A model generated the notes under the pieces. The model ran no database searches. It was not told where the DNA came from and saw only the letters and a list, made by a program, of their open reading frames with translations. A program made the translations under genes and the position numbers. 64,000 bases of DNA from a virus. The DNA is taken from the IMG/VR virus record IMGVR_UViG_3300021962_000055, positions 1-64,000 of that record; one strand, written 5' to 3'. Of the stretch, positions 52,241 through 59,793 are shown one piece after another; positions within the stretch are counted from its first letter, which is position 1; each line of letters begins with the position of its first letter.

Positions 52241-54027
52241 CACGCACCTGACCATGTGAGCGCAAGCCTCTGCGCCCCTATTGACTGGTTCCCTTGAACA
52301 ACACCCTTATTAGTCGCACTGGCGGTCAAATTAACCCCAGATGTCGTAGTGGCCGTAAGGTCTACAGTCACTTCAAAAATGTAATAAGAGTTTTTAATAG
52401 AGGACGGCACATCATTTCTTGTGCTAGCGTTAAACCGGCTAGATGATTCATTTGGGATGTCTTTGTTATCGGTGCTCGTGTGTATGGATCTACGTCTTAT
52501 ACGTGCTCCACTGGCTCCAGATCCAGATGTACCGGCACCCCACTCAGACTTACTTGCAGCTGTTTCACTTTTAGTAAACGACCCCATCTGTACAACACCT
52601 GAAGAGCTTTCTTTGTAAGTGTTGTTGTTTAACAAAGAAGTTGCCTCTGATTGGGTTAACCCTACTGACCCTGATCGTTTCCCGTACATAGAAAGTTTTG
52701 TTGTGTAACTAATCGTTATACCTGCATCTGCCTCAAACAATTTAAGAATGTCGTCGTCATCAGCACCGGTTCTGGTGCGTTCACCAGTTTCTGCGTCGTC
52801 GACGTCTTCTCCACCTCTAATTGCCCGTACTTTATCGAACCCCATGAAAAGGGCTCTACCAGTAGAATCGTTTGTAAAGCCAGCCGAGTCATTAACAACA
52901 TAGACCCAAGCCCCGTTATCGTCTATCTTGTTGTTGAATGCATCGTCGATATCTTTTTCGCTGTCTTCATATTCAACAGTAAACACTGCCGTAAAGCTGC
53001 TACCGGTAGTTGACAAAGCCTTCAATAGTTCTTTCTTTTCCCCTTCTTTGGCAGCGTCTTCTTGTTGCTTAGCCACCGCAGCACTTTTAAATTGCTTGGT
53101 AAGGAAAGTGTCTTGTTGAGCAAATCCAATGTACATGGCGCTCATAGACAAGTACACCTTGCACTGCAGGGGTACCATGTTCGTGTTGAACTTGAGAAAC
53201 TCAACTTTAGACGCGGTAATAAACCCATCTAACATGAACAAGCTTGAAAACATAACACGTACTGGGTTTGGCATCAAGAAAGCTGAGTTGCCAAAGTTTG
53301 CTTTCATAATCTCAGTTGCGGCAACGTCGTCAACTACCAGACCAGCGTCATCTGTTGTTGTAGAATCTTCTCCGTCGTCCTCCCCATCATCCTCTCCGTC
53401 AGTAGAGGGTTCTGGTTGTTGATTGTTATATACGCTACTGGCATTTGTTTTCAACGACGCCAACTGCCAGTTAAGCATCTCAGCTGAGAAACCTTGCCCA
53501 ATAACAGAATACAAGACCCGCAGGTCTGACATTACGCCAATGTCATACACATCCTTTGAGTCGTAATCACCCTTAACGTCGGCAGCGGGGTTGCTATTGG
53601 GGTCAGAAAATCGGCTATTACCAGCCGCAACTTCAGCAGACCTATCAAACAATAAGTCAAACTGAAAGTTCATAACAGCCCCCACTGGTTGGGCCAACTG
53701 CTCCGGAGTTTGCAAGATTGACAAATACATGTCTTCTCGCATTGCAACGTTTTGTTGAATATCTTGTGGGTTAAATTGAAAGTTGCACCGACTAATTGGA
53801 ACACCTTCTCCTAAAGCTGGTTGTTCTAAGTTGCGTATGTACCCTCTATGCAACCTGTAATTGCCCCCAGCTACAGCCTGCTCATGCCCCCGAGCCGCTA
53901 GGGCGTGTTCAGCTTCAAGAAATCTAATACTACGGCTGGGGTATATAAAGGGTGGGTTTGTTATTCCCGTAGCTGATTTTTGCTCGTTCCAGTTAACACC
54001 AAAATCTCCGTCCTCACGGTAACCCAT
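52240..54027 (-). CDS. Large tail/baseplate protein, 595 aa
   Basis: A 595-residue protein with RCNFQFNPQDIQQNVAMRED near residue 79, typical of tail proteins found next to LysM/hub genes. A run of GEDD-type acidic repeats lies at about residues 209-220 (DNA about 53370-53400). The remaining sequence is beta-rich and Ser/Thr-rich. It is probably a tube-initiator or hub-associated structural protein. No enzymatic motif is seen. Confidence 0.6.
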   Translation of the reverse strand: MGYREDGDFGVNWNEQKSATGITNPPFIYPSRSIRFLEAEHALAARGHEQAVAGGNYRLHRGYIRNLEQPALGEGVPISRCNFQFNPQDIQQNVAMREDMYLSILQTPEQLAQPVGAVMNFQFDLLFDRSAEVAAGNSRFSDPNSNPAADVKGDYDSKDVYDIGVMSDLRVLYSVIGQGFSAEMLNWQLASLKTNASSVYNNQQPEPSTDGEDDGEDDGEDSTTTDDAGLVVDDVAATEIMKANFGNSAFLMPNPVRVMFSSLFMLDGFITASKVEFLKFNTNMVPLQCKVYLSMSAMYIGFAQQDTFLTKQFKSAAVAKQQEDAAKEGEKKELLKALSTTGSSFTAVFTVEYEDSEKDIDDAFNNKIDDNGAWVYVVNDSAGFTNDSTGRALFMGFDKVRAIRGGEDVDDAETGERTRTGADDDDILKLFEADAGITISYTTKLSMYGKRSGSVGLTQSEATSLLNNNTYKESSSGVVQMGSFTKSETAASKSEWGAGTSGSGASGARIRRRSIHTSTDNKDIPNESSSRFNASTRNDVPSSIKNSYYIFEVTVDLTATTTSGVNLTASATNKGVVQGNQSIGAQRLALTWSGA

Positions 54028-56690
54028 TAGCTGCTCCTCAACGATTCGATTTCAAGTTCACGCCTAATCATTGCTACTAACTCCGAAGCAATCTTTTTAA
54101 GATCTTGAGAGTTTCCACTACCCATCAAGTTGATCGTTGGGCTCATATTGATAGTGGTGCCTCCGGTTACCGATACAGCACCGCCAACAGACTGAGACAC
54201 ACGGCTAGCAACCGGTGTTGGGTCTCCAGACGGGTTAGGTACGCCTCGACTTTGGAGCACCTCGGTGGTCTGGTAGTCCGGGGCCCAAGACGAGTGGGCT
54301 TTCTCGATGGCTGCTGCTACCGCGTAGGGGTCATTACTCTTGTTCTTTAGAGCGTTGATAACACCCTTTTGGTAATTGGTCATATGGTAAACGCTGGCCA
54401 ACATACCCTGTTCGTAGTTGGCAAAGTTCCATACGTGCCTTTTACCCCCCTCCCCAAAGGAGTTAAATGGTGTTGCTTCGCCCAGGTGAGCGCCCCCAGA
54501 ACTTTGGGGAGAAGAGATGGTAGCGAGTGGGTTGAACTTAGCTCGAGTTCCTTCCGAGGCAATCCATGCAGACATCACCTGAAGGTTTGCTTCGGTTACA
54601 GGTGCCCCAATCCTTCTAAGGAAATCGCTACTCCACTGAGCAATGTCTACGCCAGATTTAGCGGTGCCCCCACTTGGGCCAAGGTCAATAGACATTGACG
54701 TTCCGCTGGCTCCTACGATGCGACCTGGCCTACGCCTTCTCTGCGTAGTCGACCCATCGGTTTGAACTGCCGTTCCACCAATACTACGTGCTACCCGCTC
54801 AGAAATAGAGGCGTAGCCAGAGGTGCCACCCTCCGAAAGGGCCGGAGAAGCTAGGCCAGTACGCGGACTGTCTCCCATCATTTCGCCAAAGTTACTGTTG
54901 GGGTCAAACGGAGCTGCACTTGTCGGCCCATGTCCCCAAGGTGCTCCCATTCGTTCGTATTCACCACGACCACCCGGAAGGTCTGCTGGCTGCACGTGCC
55001 ACGGTTCGTTGTTAACGTCTTTGAAGTGGCGTAGGCCGTATTTGTGAGCGTTGGCTACCACCCAATCAAGATCTCCAGTAAGGTCGGCAGCAAGACCGAT
55101 CTCATGCATCGATCGTCCCGGAGGGGCTGCTGCTGCCCCGCTGGTGTGCTCCCAGTATGAACCGTCCCACTGAATGTTCTTCTCACCACGGGAGTTAGTA
55201 GGACTGGTTGTCTTCGTGTATCGAGACAGGAACATACGACGTTGCTCGTCAGAACTACGTACACCTGTACCAATCTTTACGTTGGGGTTATCCGCCATCA
55301 TCTTTGATAGGCGTTGTTGGAATGTTGGGTGTAACCCAGACATCCTTCCGCCAGACGACGGAGCTGTTGGGGTATTTGGATCCCCACCAAAGTTCAGGCC
55401 ACTTGGGTCAGACCCAAACCCCAGCCCATTAGTAACATTTTGGAAAACACTTGTGGCAATTCGGTTACTGCCGACCAATCCAAGAATCCCAGACAGACTG
55501 TCTTCTAGGGCTCCAAATGCCCTGGTAAGTGACTGTGTCTGACGCTCTAGGTATGCGTAGTTGTCTACCTGGCGTCTATAAAAGTTTTCATCGCGCCTTG
55601 TCTCTAGACGTTGGGTTTCTTCGACCTGAGTAGCAAAGTTCTCCTCAATACCCATACGACGGCGGTCGGCTTCTTTACTGGGGTCATACATACCCCGCCC
55701 ACCCTTACCCTGGAACGTAAGGTTTTGCTGGGCGTATTGAATAAGCTGGGTCTGCATCTCTTGCGGCACACCCATCATTGTCAACTTGGATCGTGTCACC
55801 GATCCTGGGAGTAGGGCTGATTTGACAGTCTTCTCGTCGGTCAACCCAGCAGCCCGTACGAGGCCTTGCATAACACTCATACCAGAGTTCTGTGTACCAC
55901 CAGGTCCAATGATGGAGGTACCAGTCATCATGAACATTCGGTTGGCCACAGGAGCACTGGCCAAGGTGCCCAGCATCCCGGTTACATCACTGGCCGACAT
56001 GGAGTAACCGCTCATAGTGCGGAATGCCTCAACAGAGGCGGCCTGCTGGCGACCACTAAGTCCGATGGATGCTTCCATGGACATCAAGTCATTTATGCCT
56101 CCAGCACCAAGACGGTAGTTGGTCAAGGGCATACGATAGGTAGAACTAACCCCAAGCTGGCTTTGCCCTGTCAACTGCTGGTACAGCACCGACATCCGGT
56201 CAGCTGCCAAAACCCCTTCACGCCCCCTGTCAAACCGGGAGTTAGCAGCGTTAATGCCCATGTTAGCCATGGACAAACCAACGGCGGCTGCGCCAAACAT
56301 ACGCCCACCGCCAGCCATCTTGGTTTTTCCGATGGCGCCCATAACGCCACCCTCATTGAAGGTTCCTGCAATATCGGCTCGGCGTTCAAACAGCCTCTTT
56401 GCAGCGCTTAAGTTGGTACCAGCCATCTTGGTGCCCGCTGCACCACGAGCGTCCCCACCCCCGTCACCTCCGCCTGCTGCACCCTCGGCACGGTCTTCAA
56501 GGTCCCCCATGGCCTCAGAGACGGCCTTCTTAAGACCCTTCTCAAACCGTGTGATTACACGATCAACAAAAGCGTTTACAGATTTTTCAATGGCCTGGAC
56601 ATCCTGGTTCACAGAACTTGAAACAGGGCGTGCGTCTCCACCAAGGGTGGATTCTTCTGCCCCTGACTGTGATAGTGGATCTATTGCCAT
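54027..56690 (-). CDS. Tape measure protein with two muralytic domains
   Basis: An 887-residue protein directly after the tail chaperone region, the usual site of the tape measure. Gly/Ala-rich and helical segments occupy residues 1-440. Residues about 455-575 carry an M15 D-Ala-D-Ala peptidase-like motif (GRSMHEIGLAADLTG and EPWHVQP). Residues about 690-800 look like a lysozyme-type domain (AWIASEGTR, NFANYEQGMLASV). The enzymes would locally open the wall during infection. Its length sets an approximate tail length. Confidence 0.8.
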   Translation of the reverse strand: MAIDPLSQSGAEESTLGGDARPVSSSVNQDVQAIEKSVNAFVDRVITRFEKGLKKAVSEAMGDLEDRAEGAAGGGDGGGDARGAAGTKMAGTNLSAAKRLFERRADIAGTFNEGGVMGAIGKTKMAGGGRMFGAAAVGLSMANMGINAANSRFDRGREGVLAADRMSVLYQQLTGQSQLGVSSTYRMPLTNYRLGAGGINDLMSMEASIGLSGRQQAASVEAFRTMSGYSMSASDVTGMLGTLASAPVANRMFMMTGTSIIGPGGTQNSGMSVMQGLVRAAGLTDEKTVKSALLPGSVTRSKLTMMGVPQEMQTQLIQYAQQNLTFQGKGGRGMYDPSKEADRRRMGIEENFATQVEETQRLETRRDENFYRRQVDNYAYLERQTQSLTRAFGALEDSLSGILGLVGSNRIATSVFQNVTNGLGFGSDPSGLNFGGDPNTPTAPSSGGRMSGLHPTFQQRLSKMMADNPNVKIGTGVRSSDEQRRMFLSRYTKTTSPTNSRGEKNIQWDGSYWEHTSGAAAAPPGRSMHEIGLAADLTGDLDWVVANAHKYGLRHFKDVNNEPWHVQPADLPGGRGEYERMGAPWGHGPTSAAPFDPNSNFGEMMGDSPRTGLASPALSEGGTSGYASISERVARSIGGTAVQTDGSTTQRRRRPGRIVGASGTSMSIDLGPSGGTAKSGVDIAQWSSDFLRRIGAPVTEANLQVMSAWIASEGTRAKFNPLATISSPQSSGGAHLGEATPFNSFGEGGKRHVWNFANYEQGMLASVYHMTNYQKGVINALKNKSNDPYAVAAAIEKAHSSWAPDYQTTEVLQSRGVPNPSGDPTPVASRVSQSVGGAVSVTGGTTINMSPTINLMGSGNSQDLKKIASELVAMIRRELEIESLRSS

Positions 56691-56702: not shown

Positions 56703-56873
56703 TTAGGTACTACGCCATTTTGCCATACGGAACCAGAAGTCACGTTGGCGAACGGTCATGGACCGTAAATCCGAGAGATTGAACCCTTTGTAAACAGAGG
56801 CGATTAATTCGTATTCCCAATAAGTATATTTCAGATTAGCTAAGTAGAAGGGAGATCCAGTCGATCCTGATGG
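56703..56873 (-). CDS. Frame without a start codon, frameshift partner of tail chaperone
   Basis: An open frame of 56 codons on the minus strand with no ATG, GTG or TTG until 17 codons before its end. The sequence YWEYELIASVYKGFNLSDL then SMTVRQRDFWFRMAKW is the kind found in tail assembly chaperone extensions. It is +1 (or -2) relative to the upstream gene, overlaps its end (56836-56873), and ends 12 nt before the tape measure. This arrangement strongly suggests programmed frameshifting as in lambda G/GT and Mu; the slip site is not obvious. Confidence 0.7.
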   Translation of the reverse strand, partial: PSGSTGSPFYLANLKYTYWEYELIASVYKGFNLSDLRSMTVRQRDFWFRMAKWRST

Positions 56874-57633
56874 TCATATCATGACCGCAGTGAGCGCACG
56901 GGACATCCACCTCCCCGAGCTTCGGGCCTGCCGAGATGGAGGTCAGGGACTTGATAAGTGTATTACGATCACCGAGGTTAAGGCCCTTGGCCCAAGATTC
57001 AGCCTGAGCCTGCGTTTCCCCGTTCTCCCACACACGGCACTTTGCCAGCATGGCGGAGTTCTGTTCTGCTACAGACTTGGACACCTTGGCAGCAAAAGAG
57101 TTATCTGCTGCTGTAGGGATCCTCAGCTTGATAATCTCACCATTACGGATCTTGACATCGATTGTTGATCGCAGGTCTACGTTTGGTTCTAGCAGAGGAA
57201 AGTCTTCCTCAAGATCTACTGTCACATCATTGAGTTTCTCACAGTTACCGCACTGGGCCTGAAACGACTTGGTGCGTCCGTACGTGGCCCGGATTACCCC
57301 AAGGAACAGGATATCCCTGTCACCGATTGTAAGGGCGTCAAGTACAGACGGGTTGTCACTAGTTGACATCTGGCCAACCCTAACCACAGTTCTCTTAATA
57401 AGAGAAGACATGTATTCGGCGTAGGTCAAAGTACTCTTTGACTCGAGCCCTGCCATGTACTCCTCATCAGCGCCTGTCATCTCCCGTACCTCGGCATCCG
57501 TGTACCAGATGCCCGTGTTTGGGTCCACCAATCCACGTTGAAGCTCGACGATCACCCGCTCGGGTGAGTTAAGTTCTGGGGCTGGTTCTTTGATGGCGTT
57601 GTTTACTGCGTCCGCGTCGTTTGCGATTCCCAC
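56836..57633 (-). CDS. Tail assembly chaperone/T4 baseplate-like protein
   Basis: A 265-residue protein with CGNCEK (about residue 130) and CAHCGH near the end, probably zinc ligands, and conserved text such as GDRDILFLGVIRATYG and SLTSISAGPK. It resembles the T4 baseplate-type family that replaces tail chaperones in myophages. It lies between tube and tape measure. A frame following its end lacks a start, suggesting a longer form by frameshift. Confidence 0.7.
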   Translation of the reverse strand: MGIANDADAVNNAIKEPAPELNSPERVIVELQRGLVDPNTGIWYTDAEVREMTGADEEYMAGLESKSTLTYAEYMSSLIKRTVVRVGQMSTSDNPSVLDALTIGDRDILFLGVIRATYGRTKSFQAQCGNCEKLNDVTVDLEEDFPLLEPNVDLRSTIDVKIRNGEIIKLRIPTAADNSFAAKVSKSVAEQNSAMLAKCRVWENGETQAQAESWAKGLNLGDRNTLIKSLTSISAGPKLGEVDVPCAHCGHDMTIRIDWISLLLS

Positions 57634-57653: not shown

Positions 57654-58250
57654 TCAGATAGATGCGAGGGCTTCTACCTCTGCCTTGGTCCAAGCTACCA
57701 CAAAACCTTCGTGATGCACTGTTAGCTGCTGAACCATGATGCCGCTGTCGCCAGCATTAAGGTCGCTCAACGAGTAGGCGCCTGGCCAGCAGTTAAACAC
57801 CTTGAAACCAAAGCGAGCATCGCCGGGGGATGGGGCCTGACCGTCTACGTCACCAGGGCTGGAATATGAACCGCTGGATACTGGGTGGTCAAATACCTTT
57901 ACCAGGATGTCGCAGCGGTAGTTGTTGTCAGCACTGGTGGAGTTACCAGATGCCTGGTTCCATGAGTGCAAGAACTGCTGCCACTTGTACATCTGAGACT
58001 GATCAGAGAACACACCACGGCTAAAGGTGATTGGTGCAAAGTCTGACTGGCCAATGAACTTGTGTGGGTGGGTGTTCATTCCACCCTCGCGGTAACCGAC
58101 CATCTCGTTCTGTACCGACAGACCAGACATGGCGGCAAACCCCAACTTGTCGAGCCCCCTGGCAGCGTTGCCAAGAACCCCGGGGCCAGGGTTGATCGTA
58201 ACTTGGAATTTAAAGTTACGGATTGGATCGCTAATTGCTGAACGTGCCAT
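57654..58250 (-). CDS. Tail tube protein (gp19-like)
   Basis: A 198-residue tail tube protein of T4 gp19/phage-tail-like type. NFKFQVTI, then SVQNEMVGYREGG and SDFAPITFSRGVF match the family, and the C-terminus has GIMVQQLTVHHEGF. It lies directly after the sheath gene with 10 nt between them. It forms the inner tube of the contractile tail. Confidence 0.88.
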   Translation of the reverse strand: MARSAISDPIRNFKFQVTINPGPGVLGNAARGLDKLGFAAMSGLSVQNEMVGYREGGMNTHPHKFIGQSDFAPITFSRGVFSDQSQMYKWQQFLHSWNQASGNSTSADNNYRCDILVKVFDHPVSSGSYSSPGDVDGQAPSPGDARFGFKVFNCWPGAYSLSDLNAGDSGIMVQQLTVHHEGFVVAWTKAEVEALASI

Positions 58251-58260
58251 CTATGACTCC

Positions 58261-59793
58261 TCAGATGTTTGAAATGGTATTGGATCCGCCAGTCCACTGG
58301 CTAAGATTGATTACAATGAACTCTGCGGGGTACTGCAGGGCGACACCGACCTCTACACGAACTTCACCGTTATTGATGGTGGTTGAGGTGTTGTTGGTCT
58401 CATTGCAGATTACATAGAAAGCCTGGGTCGAGTTGGCACCCTTAAGGCCACCCGAACGCCAGAAATCACCGAGCAGTGAAGAGGCGGTCATGGTGATGCG
58501 ATCCCACAGACGCTGGTCGTTGGGCTCAAACACAGCAAATGCGGTAGCGTCCTGTAGTGCCTGCTTCAAGTAGTTGAGTGACCGGCGGATTGGGATGTAC
58601 TTGCCAGGGGTCTGTTTGTCTAGGGTGCGGGTACCGTTGATTACGATACCGGCTCCTGGAATTGCTTTGAACAGGTTTACACCATAGGTGTCGTAAAGTG
58701 ATGCCGACTCAGCGCTAGTGAATGAAGCGGTAAGGCCGATGGCGTTACGGATGTCAGTGCCATAACCAGCAGGGGCCTTAGCTACCGTACGAGCAACTTC
58801 CGAACGGACGTACGCACCAGCAACAGCTCCACCAGGGTAGGTGTCACGGATAGCGGCTGGGCCGGTCTTGGTTGGGTCAGCCATCTTCAACATTGGGTAG
58901 TAAACAGCAGCGTATGAAGAGGTTGTGTAGGAGTTCACAGTGCCTGCGCCGATGGTCGATGCGTCAGTAGCAGACGAGGGGTCGATGATTACAAACGAGT
59001 TTCCACGAGCCTCGGCCTTTGCAATAAGGGCGTTTACAACGGTGCTAGAAGTGCGACCCACTGCGTTAAGCAATAGGACTCCCTCGACGGTCTCTAGTTT
59101 AGTGGAAATTGATGCCGTGTAGTCAGCGTCAACTACCGATGCTCCATCAACTGCCGCCGAAAAAGCTACCGGGCTGGTGAACCATGACCAGTTGTTGTTG
59201 GCGGTTGGGGTGGGGCAGGAAGTTACCTTGATGTATTTTGAGTAGGTATTAACAACGGTGGTTACATACCGGTTGTTGGAGGCGCTGTTGGAAACCTCGT
59301 TCCAACGTTCAACTTCAACTCCACCCAAGTGCACAGTAAGGTTGAATGTGGGGATAACTGAAGCGGTTGGGGATACGGTTCCGCCGCTTACAGTTACAGT
59401 GAGGTCACTGCCCCAAGCACCAGGGCTAGATGCCTCTACGGCAATCAACGTTGCCGATGCTCCGGAAAGACCACTTGGGTAATAAGGAACAGTAGTGGAG
59501 GCGGTAGAAGCAAGTGTTCCGGCTCCTGACGTGTGGAGTACGCGAACTACATATGCGTCACGACCACCGTTTGCAAAGTAGTGGTAGACGGCATACCCAA
59601 GATCGTGGTTAGCATCGATATCCCCATAGAAGGACTTGAAAGCACTCCAAGAGTTAATCAACGTAGCAGTCAAAGGACCACGTGGGGCGGTGCCAAAGAA
59701 CACCGCAGTTGACTGAGCGGAGTTGGAACGTTGGGCGTTATTGGTAAGAGTTGACTCTGTTACGTATACGCCTGGATTTGAATATGTGGGCAT
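58261..59793 (-). CDS. Tail sheath protein
   Basis: A 510-residue tail sheath protein. The N-terminus has PTYSNPGVYVTES, the middle a Ser/Thr/Ala-rich variable part, and the C-terminus KQTPGKYIPIRRSLNYLKQAL and RLWDRITMTASSLLGDFW, all characteristic of the contractile sheath family. Its presence shows that the phage has a contractile tail. It is followed directly by the tube gene. Confidence 0.92.
   Translation of the reverse strand: MPTYSNPGVYVTESTLTNNAQRSNSAQSTAVFFGTAPRGPLTATLINSWSAFKSFYGDIDANHDLGYAVYHYFANGGRDAYVVRVLHTSGAGTLASTASTTVPYYPSGLSGASATLIAVEASSPGAWGSDLTVTVSGGTVSPTASVIPTFNLTVHLGGVEVERWNEVSNSASNNRYVTTVVNTYSKYIKVTSCPTPTANNNWSWFTSPVAFSAAVDGASVVDADYTASISTKLETVEGVLLLNAVGRTSSTVVNALIAKAEARGNSFVIIDPSSATDASTIGAGTVNSYTTSSYAAVYYPMLKMADPTKTGPAAIRDTYPGGAVAGAYVRSEVARTVAKAPAGYGTDIRNAIGLTASFTSAESASLYDTYGVNLFKAIPGAGIVINGTRTLDKQTPGKYIPIRRSLNYLKQALQDATAFAVFEPNDQRLWDRITMTASSLLGDFWRSGGLKGANSTQAFYVICNETNNTSTTINNGEVRVEVGVALQYPAEFIVINLSQWTGGSNTISNI

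What the first reader, a model, noticed from the sequence alone, without database searches (positions are those of the whole stretch)
56703..56873. Programmed frameshift in the tail chaperone region
The frame before the tape measure has no usable start codon, overlaps the end of the chaperone gene in the +1 (or -2) register, and encodes a conserved-looking segment. Tail chaperones with C-terminal extensions made by slippage are general in long-tailed phages, but a +1 or -2 event without a clear slippery heptamer would be less common.
Basis: partly seen in the sequence, partly recalled or inferred. Interest (0 to 1): 0.7.

Follow-up and report, generated by a model that had tools for sequence, protein, structure and literature searches.

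The report
Forward (+1) frameshift in phage tail chaperone
A virus of bacteria makes two versions of a tail-building helper protein from one gene by having some ribosomes slip one base forward at the sequence CTT-CTA, a rarely documented type of programmed slip that is preserved in every close relative examined.

Summary
On the minus strand, an ORF at 56873-56703 overlaps the end of the tail chaperone gene (57633-56836) in the +1 register. It has no ATG/GTG/TTG until 30 codons past the junction. The chaperone belongs to the T4 gp26/gp51 family (PF12322). I compared 151 distinct junctions. In all 82 of the window's clade the chaperone ends CTT-(C/T)TA-(C/T)TN-NNN-stop. The +1 frame is open in 82/82 for 44 codons, while the other two frames are interrupted in 81-82. 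It is under protein-level selection (pN/pS 0.33) and is better conserved than the chaperone in 80/80 comparisons. Relatives confine the shift to about 23 nt around CTT. A sister clade (Streptomyces phages, actinobacterial prophages, soil phages) also shifts +1, at TTT-C, although its other Phe codons are 81% TTC. Five more distant loci use the -1 frame. Best reading: programmed +1 slippage of P-site tRNA-Leu from CUU to UUC (56850-56848), making a minor chaperone with a three-helix extension. T4 makes a comparable pair from two genes. The -2 and CTG-start alternatives are disfavoured. There is no wet-lab proof.

The parts
56836..57633 (-). Zero-frame tail assembly chaperone, short form (265 aa, GTG start), T4 gp26/gp51-like with two CxxC pairs
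   Evidence: PF12322 E=8e-11; phrog_150 baseplate hub; AlphaFold model pLDDT 88 matches T4-like baseplate hub/chaperone models down to E 7e-30; best-probability PDB match is the HK97 tail assembly chaperone 2ob9, prob 0.84 but E 0.64
56848..56850 (-). Proposed slip codon CTT (P site), re-pairing +1 to TTC at 56849-56847
   Evidence: CTT in 82/82 distinct junctions; shift confined to 11 nt upstream..12 nt downstream by the nearest stops in relatives
56845..56847 (-). Zero-frame A-site codon CTA (YTA in all relatives: TTA 56, CTA 26)
56836..56838 (-). Zero-frame stop TAA, exactly 12 nt after the first base of the slip codon in all 82 relatives
56703..56873 (-). +1-frame ORF (stop to stop) given in the finding; preceded in frame by TGA at 56876-56874, ends at TAA 56705-56703
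56706..56846 (-). Part translated after the shift (YLANLKYTYWEYELIASVYKGFNLSDLRSMTVRQRDFWFRMAKWRST): C-terminal extension of the long form, predicted three-helix domain
   Evidence: pN/pS 0.33, no stops in 82/82; AlphaFold pLDDT 88, helices 4-21, 27-31, 35-49; same domain in the Streptomyces-phage clade
56696..56699 (-). GAGG Shine-Dalgarno-like site 5 nt before the tape measure ATG
   Evidence: sequence
54027..56690 (-). Tape measure protein (887 aa) with an internal VanY peptidase domain
   Evidence: position and length; VanY E=8.8e-7
57654..58250 (-). Tail tube protein (T4 gp19 family), directly upstream
   Evidence: PF06841 E=7e-22
58261..59793 (-). Contractile tail sheath protein
   Evidence: PHROG tail sheath E=1e-45

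Best explanation
A programmed +1 ribosomal frameshift produces two forms of one tail assembly chaperone. Most ribosomes read GAC TGG ATC TCC CTT CTA CTT AGC TAA and release the 265-aa short form. When CUU (56850-56848) is in the P site and CUA waits in the A site, some peptidyl-tRNA-Leu slips one base forward to UUC. The next codon read is then UAC, and translation continues for 47 codons. The predicted product is a 309-aa long form, ...DWISL-YLANLKYTYWEYELIASVYKGFNLSDLRSMTVRQRDFWFRMAKWRST. As in lambda gpG/gpGT, the short form would coat the tape measure protein and the C-terminal extension would recruit tail tube subunits. Shown by comparison: coding status of the +1 frame, lack of independent starts, boundaries and invariance of the site, family membership. 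Inferred: slippage itself, the tRNA step, frequency, and function of the long form.
For: (1) +1 frame open in 82/82 relatives and under protein-level selection, pN/pS 0.33 against 1.48 and 1.32 in the other frames. (2) No ATG/GTG/TTG before codon +30 in the window; none within -15..+8 codons of the junction in 48/82, with no conserved position in the rest. (3) CTT, YTA and the 12-nt distance to the stop invariant in 82/82; the pattern occurs once in the 92.8-kb record. (4) Nearest +1 stops lie 11 nt before the slip codon and the zero-frame stop 12 nt after it begins, so the shift must occur there. (5) Sister clade is +1 at TTT-C, 63 of 64 with one TTT-T (L258), while Phe codons elsewhere in those genes are 374 TTC to 87 TTT; the following codon is free, so TTT-C is kept for slippage rather than coding. 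(6) CUU is the strongest known +1 slip codon in bacteria (prfB) and the Ty1 site is CUU_AGG_C (PMC5009743). (7) Chaperone position between tube and tape measure; T4 gp26 and gp51 both hit PF12322 and gp51 carries an extra 48-residue C-terminus, with fused profiles collinear to gp51 at P 0.001 (window clade) and 2e-4 (sister clade), hhalign probability only 3-21%. (8) Structure match to T4-like hub/chaperone models.
Against: No protein or reporter evidence. CTT CTA also occurs in frame at six other places in the window's major ORFs without an obvious recoding role, so the hexamer alone cannot be highly shift-prone. No stable RNA structure lies just downstream (mean z 0.2-0.7), and the upstream anti-SD match is weak (about -3 kcal/mol). 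CTA is not rare in this virus (12.4 per 1000), although TTA, used by most relatives, is third rarest. Invariant CTT-YTA could partly reflect dual coding. The 82 sequences are related and not independent.
Confidence: 0.86

Rival explanations
1. -2 ribosomal frameshift, as in phage Mu, reaching the same frame with one extra residue.
For: Same frame relation; -2 is documented in Mu (PMC5009743).
Against: No sensible re-pairing two bases back: CUU to CCC, CAC or ACC depending on the relative; in the sister clade UUU would move mostly to UGU, and the codon after UUU varies (CGC, CAG, CTC, CCG). Only +1 re-pairing (YUU to UUY) is preserved.
Confidence: 0.06
2. Separate small gene started at a non-canonical codon (CTG 56834, ATT, ATA) or by termination-reinitiation at the chaperone stop; no fusion.
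For: Annotators of BRock, GiJojo and LuckySocke called it a separate gene.
Against: Called starts differ between related phages; CTG is found in 13/82 only; a separate start would not explain the open +1 frame between slip and stop, the invariant CTT-Y/TTT-C, or the +1/-1 alternation in homologues.
Confidence: 0.05
3. Sequencing or assembly indel, or a decayed gene.
For: A single frame break is the usual look of an indel error.
Against: Same frame relation in 82 distinct junctions of many independent metagenome assemblies, and in isolated Streptomyces phages.
Confidence: 0.01
4. Transcriptional slippage rather than ribosomal frameshifting.
For: It can also join two frames.
Against: The site has no homopolymer run of the usual length (longest run CCC in TCCCTTCTA); it is conserved as codon-phased CTT-YTA.
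Confidence: 0.02

Closest known systems
Lambda gpG/gpGT tail assembly chaperone frameshift
   Same: Chaperone just upstream of the tape measure; short form plus frameshifted long form
   Different: Lambda is -1 on a classic heptamer; unrelated chaperone family; here +1 at CUU_CUA
T4 gp26/gp51 tail assembly chaperones (Vladimirov, Gautam, Davidson 2022, cited in PMC12846349)
   Same: Same protein family PF12322; long form has a C-terminal extension ending in a similar motif
   Different: T4 encodes short and long forms as two separate, divergently oriented genes; here one gene plus a +1 shift
Vandenendeviridae/Andersonviridae chaperone -1 frameshift at GTTTTT (PMC12846349)
   Same: Contractile-tailed phages, chaperone fused by recoding, same style of comparative evidence
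   Different: -1, poly-T site
HF1/HF2/HSTV-2 haloarchaeal myoviruses, +1 proposed, at TTT-CGC in the HF1 group (PMC7230728, PMC5009743)
   Same: +1 shift in a chaperone upstream of the tape measure; TTT-CGC identical to the BRock-clade site; seen in HF2
   Different: HF2 chaperone shows no PF12322 match; archaeal host; TTT rather than CTT
Bacterial prfB CUU_UGA and yeast Ty1 CUU_AGG_C +1 sites (PMC5009743)
   Same: tRNA-Leu slips +1 from CUU to an overlapping UUN codon
   Different: prfB shifts at a stop codon, helped by a Shine-Dalgarno-like element (from general knowledge); Ty1 uses a rare Arg codon; here a Leu codon and no strong stimulator seen
Listeria phage PSA/A118/A500 tsh +1 at CCC_UGA (PMC5009743)
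   Same: +1 shift in a phage tail gene
   Different: Tail shaft protein, Pro codon before a stop; not a chaperone

Membership tests
Frameshifted tail assembly chaperone (G/GT type) | Two overlapping ORFs between major tail protein and tape measure genes | tested here: met
   tube 57654-58250, chaperone 56836-57633, +1 ORF 56703-56873, tape measure 54027-56690
Frameshifted tail assembly chaperone (G/GT type) | Downstream ORF without its own start, open back past the upstream stop, conserved in relatives | tested here: met
[quoted passage not shown]
   CTT-YTA 82/82; +1 type, not the X XXY YYZ heptamer
Frameshifted tail assembly chaperone (G/GT type) | Fusion protein made in vivo at low ratio; required for tail assembly | not testable with these tools
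   needs reporter, mass spectrometry and genetics
T4 gp26/gp51 chaperone family (PF12322) | Profile match above curated cut-off | tested here: met
   42.4 bits against cut-off 24.5; T4 gp26 and gp51 are both members
T4 gp26/gp51 chaperone family (PF12322) | Long form carries a C-terminal extension homologous to the gp51 C-terminus | tested here: inconclusive
   Collinear hhalign over most of the length P=0.001; extension alone P=0.086
prfB-type CUU +1 site | CUU in P site followed by Y, allowing re-pairing to UUY | tested here: met
   CTT then C/T in 82/82
prfB-type CUU +1 site | Stop codon in the A site | tested here: not met
   A-site codon is CTA/TTA; stop is 3 codons later
prfB-type CUU +1 site | Strong Shine-Dalgarno-like element about 3 nt upstream | tested here: not met
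   Mean anti-SD energy about -2.5 kcal/mol
-1 heptamer frameshift | -1 register and X XXY YYZ | tested here: not met
   -1 frame open for 2 codons only in the window; -1 seen only in distant homologues L022, L024, L282, L306, L307 and, by reading frame, XacN1

The most novel reading that the evidence does not exclude
CUU_YUA_Y at sense codons, with no adjacent stop codon, strong Shine-Dalgarno element or RNA structure, is a self-sufficient class of programmed +1 site in bacteria. Together with UUU_C in a sister clade it defines a YUU_Y rule for the T4 gp26-like chaperones, and this family has switched between +1 (two codons), -1 and two-gene solutions while keeping the same pair of products.
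Probability: 0.55. Interest if true: 0.65.

Novelty: new variant of a known kind. Interest (0 to 1): 0.52.

Why it matters
Frameshifted tail chaperones are common, but +1 cases are few and a current predictor looks only for homopolymer forward sites: PRFect searches three or four identical bases, and every CUU-stop case in RECODE is prfB (PMC10885494). This site would be missed, and its UUU_C relatives are annotated as separate genes in published Streptomyces phages. It extends +1 frameshifting into the T4 gp26/gp51 family, where T4 itself uses two genes, so one family shows +1, -1 and duplication as interchangeable ways to make a short and a long chaperone. It also offers a large natural alignment for asking what makes a sense-codon CUU site shift.

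Tried and rejected
Downstream RNA structure: no signal within 9-109 nt of the slip in either clade. A region 60-140 nt downstream folds better than shuffles in the window's clade (mean z -1.96), but it is too far away and consensus folding finds nothing. Rare-codon stall: TTA is rare but CTA is not, so left as a partial contributor. Phage-encoded tRNA-Leu: none. -2 shift, CTG start, assembly error: rejected as above. No DNA-level match in GenBank phages. HF2 chaperone as a homologue: no match, so its TTT-CGC looks convergent. Rfam: nothing. The Vladimirov 2022 and Xu 2004 papers were not found in the library, so their content is taken from citing papers.

Full report
Observation. All features lie on the minus strand of a 92,847-base IMG/VR virus record. 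The chaperone ORF runs 57633-56836, the ORF in question 56873-56703 and the tape measure 56690-54027. The second ORF is in the +1 (equivalently -2) register, is closed upstream by TGA 56876-56874, overlaps the chaperone by 35 coding nt and has no ATG/GTG/TTG until 30 codons after the junction.

What the genes are. The upstream neighbours are a T4 gp19-type tail tube and a contractile sheath. The chaperone matches PF12322 (T4_baseplate, 42.4 bits, cut-off 24.5) and PHROG 150. T4 gp26 and T4 gp51 both belong to PF12322, and gp51 has an extra C-terminal stretch (residues 202-249) outside the domain. Papers citing Vladimirov et al. 2022 describe some T4-like phages as carrying one short and one long chaperone gene instead of frameshifting (PMC10885494; PMC12846349); identifying these with gp26 and gp51 is my reading, supported by the Pfam result. 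An AlphaFold model of the window chaperone (pLDDT 88) matches T4-like baseplate hub and chaperone models (best E 7e-30). Its most probable PDB match is the HK97 tail assembly chaperone 2ob9 (probability 0.84, E 0.64), which is suggestive, not conclusive.

Relatives. Scans with the chaperone, alignments and the +1 segment, plus Streptomyces phages BRock, GiJojo, LuckySocke and pSt2308, gave 151 distinct junctions. Three kinds occur. Clade A (82, with the window): zero-frame end CTT-YTA-YTN-NNN-stop, +1 extension. Clade B (64): +1 extension with TTT followed by C in 63 and by T in one (L258). Group C (5: L022, L024, L282, L306, L307): -1 extension; L022 and L024 carry A AAT TTT. Two further records outside that set read TTT-C with a +1 extension (jumbo phage LR756508, Streptococcus phage GXN1). 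On a tree of 111 representatives built without the C-terminal codons, the three states need 3 changes (shuffled mean 40.5), with clade A on one side of a branch. Relatives were found by homology, so they are not independent samples.

The +1 segment is coding. In clade A none of 82 has a stop within 44 codons after the slip in the +1 frame, against 81 and 82 in the other frames; pN/pS is 0.33 against 1.48 and 1.32. The extension is 72% identical to the window on average while the chaperone is 47%, and the extension is higher in 80 of 80 comparisons. The clade B extension aligns with it around an invariant F and a conserved R.R..W motif. Modelled alone it is a three-helix domain (pLDDT 88).

It has no start of its own. 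No ATG/GTG/TTG lies within -15 to +8 codons of the slip in 48/82 clade A and 38/63 clade B loci, and positions differ in the rest. The suggested CTG 56834 is CTG in 13/82 and otherwise mostly another Leu, Ile or Val codon. Published annotations of BRock, GiJojo and LuckySocke place the start at different points.

Where and how. In clade A the nearest +1 stop ends 11 nt before CTT and the zero-frame stop begins 12 nt after CTT begins, so the shift lies in this short stretch. Within it the four bases CTT-Y are invariant, and Leu-tRNA with anticodon GAG can re-pair on UUY. In clade B only TTT-C is invariant: the next codon is CGC, CAG, CTC, CGT, CCG and others, and the next +1 residue is R, A, S, V, G and others, so the signal is not dual coding. 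Phe codons elsewhere in those genes are 374 TTC to 87 TTT, so TTT at the site is a kept choice. This identifies the slip codon by homology of position (most often the 4th codon before the stop in both clades). No re-pairing two bases back is preserved, which argues against -2. In clade A the base before CTT is only C or A, although TCT is the commonest Ser codon in those genes; this is unexplained and may reflect an E-site effect.

Stimulators. None is convincing: no adjacent RNA structure, weak anti-SD pairing (about -2.5 kcal/mol in clade A, -4.2 in clade B), and an A-site YTA that is rare only when it is TTA. CTT CTA occurs at six other in-frame places in the window's main ORFs, so efficiency is probably modest, or context matters.

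Comparison with known systems. Frameshifting of tail chaperones in the -1, -2 or +1 direction is established (PMC5009743). +1 cases are few: HSTV-2, and HF1-group haloviruses with TTT-CGC (PMC7230728), seen here in HF2. CUU as a +1 codon is known from prfB and Ty1. I found no report of +1 in the T4 gp26 family or of CUU in a tail chaperone among the papers searched, but the library lacks most subscription journals. Hence 'new variant of a known kind'.

Verdict. Slippage, ratio and function of the long form remain inferred.

Noticed in passing
54027..56690 (-), residues 457-566: The tape measure protein contains a VanY-like D-Ala-D-Ala carboxypeptidase domain (E 8.8e-7); the positional counterpart in phage BRock is annotated 'endolysin'.
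   Followed up: no
L026 4779-4961, L027 4779-4976, L028 4827-4982: Published Streptomyces phages BRock, GiJojo and LuckySocke annotate the +1 extension as a separate hypothetical gene at different start points; pSt2308 (L029) has no gene there.
   Followed up: partly
56790..56711 (-), 60-140 nt after the slip: RNA folding is stronger than shuffles in this part of clade A (mean z -1.96, 46% below -2), covering the end of the +1 ORF; consensus folding gave no structure.
   Followed up: partly
base 56851 (-), last base of the codon before CTT: This base is only C or A in 82/82 relatives although TCT is the commonest Ser codon in the same genes; possible E-site effect.
   Followed up: partly
L022, L024, L282, L306, L307, L313: Distant PF12322 chaperones read into the -1 frame instead, L022 and L024 at A AAT TTT and XacN1 near TTT TTT ATT: direction switching within one family.
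   Followed up: partly
L317 6300-6374 and 12883-12956 (record 85300-85374 and 91883-91956): The record carries a tRNA-Ile (anticodon TAT) and a tRNA-Arg (CCT) gene outside the window, but no tRNA-Leu.
   Followed up: no
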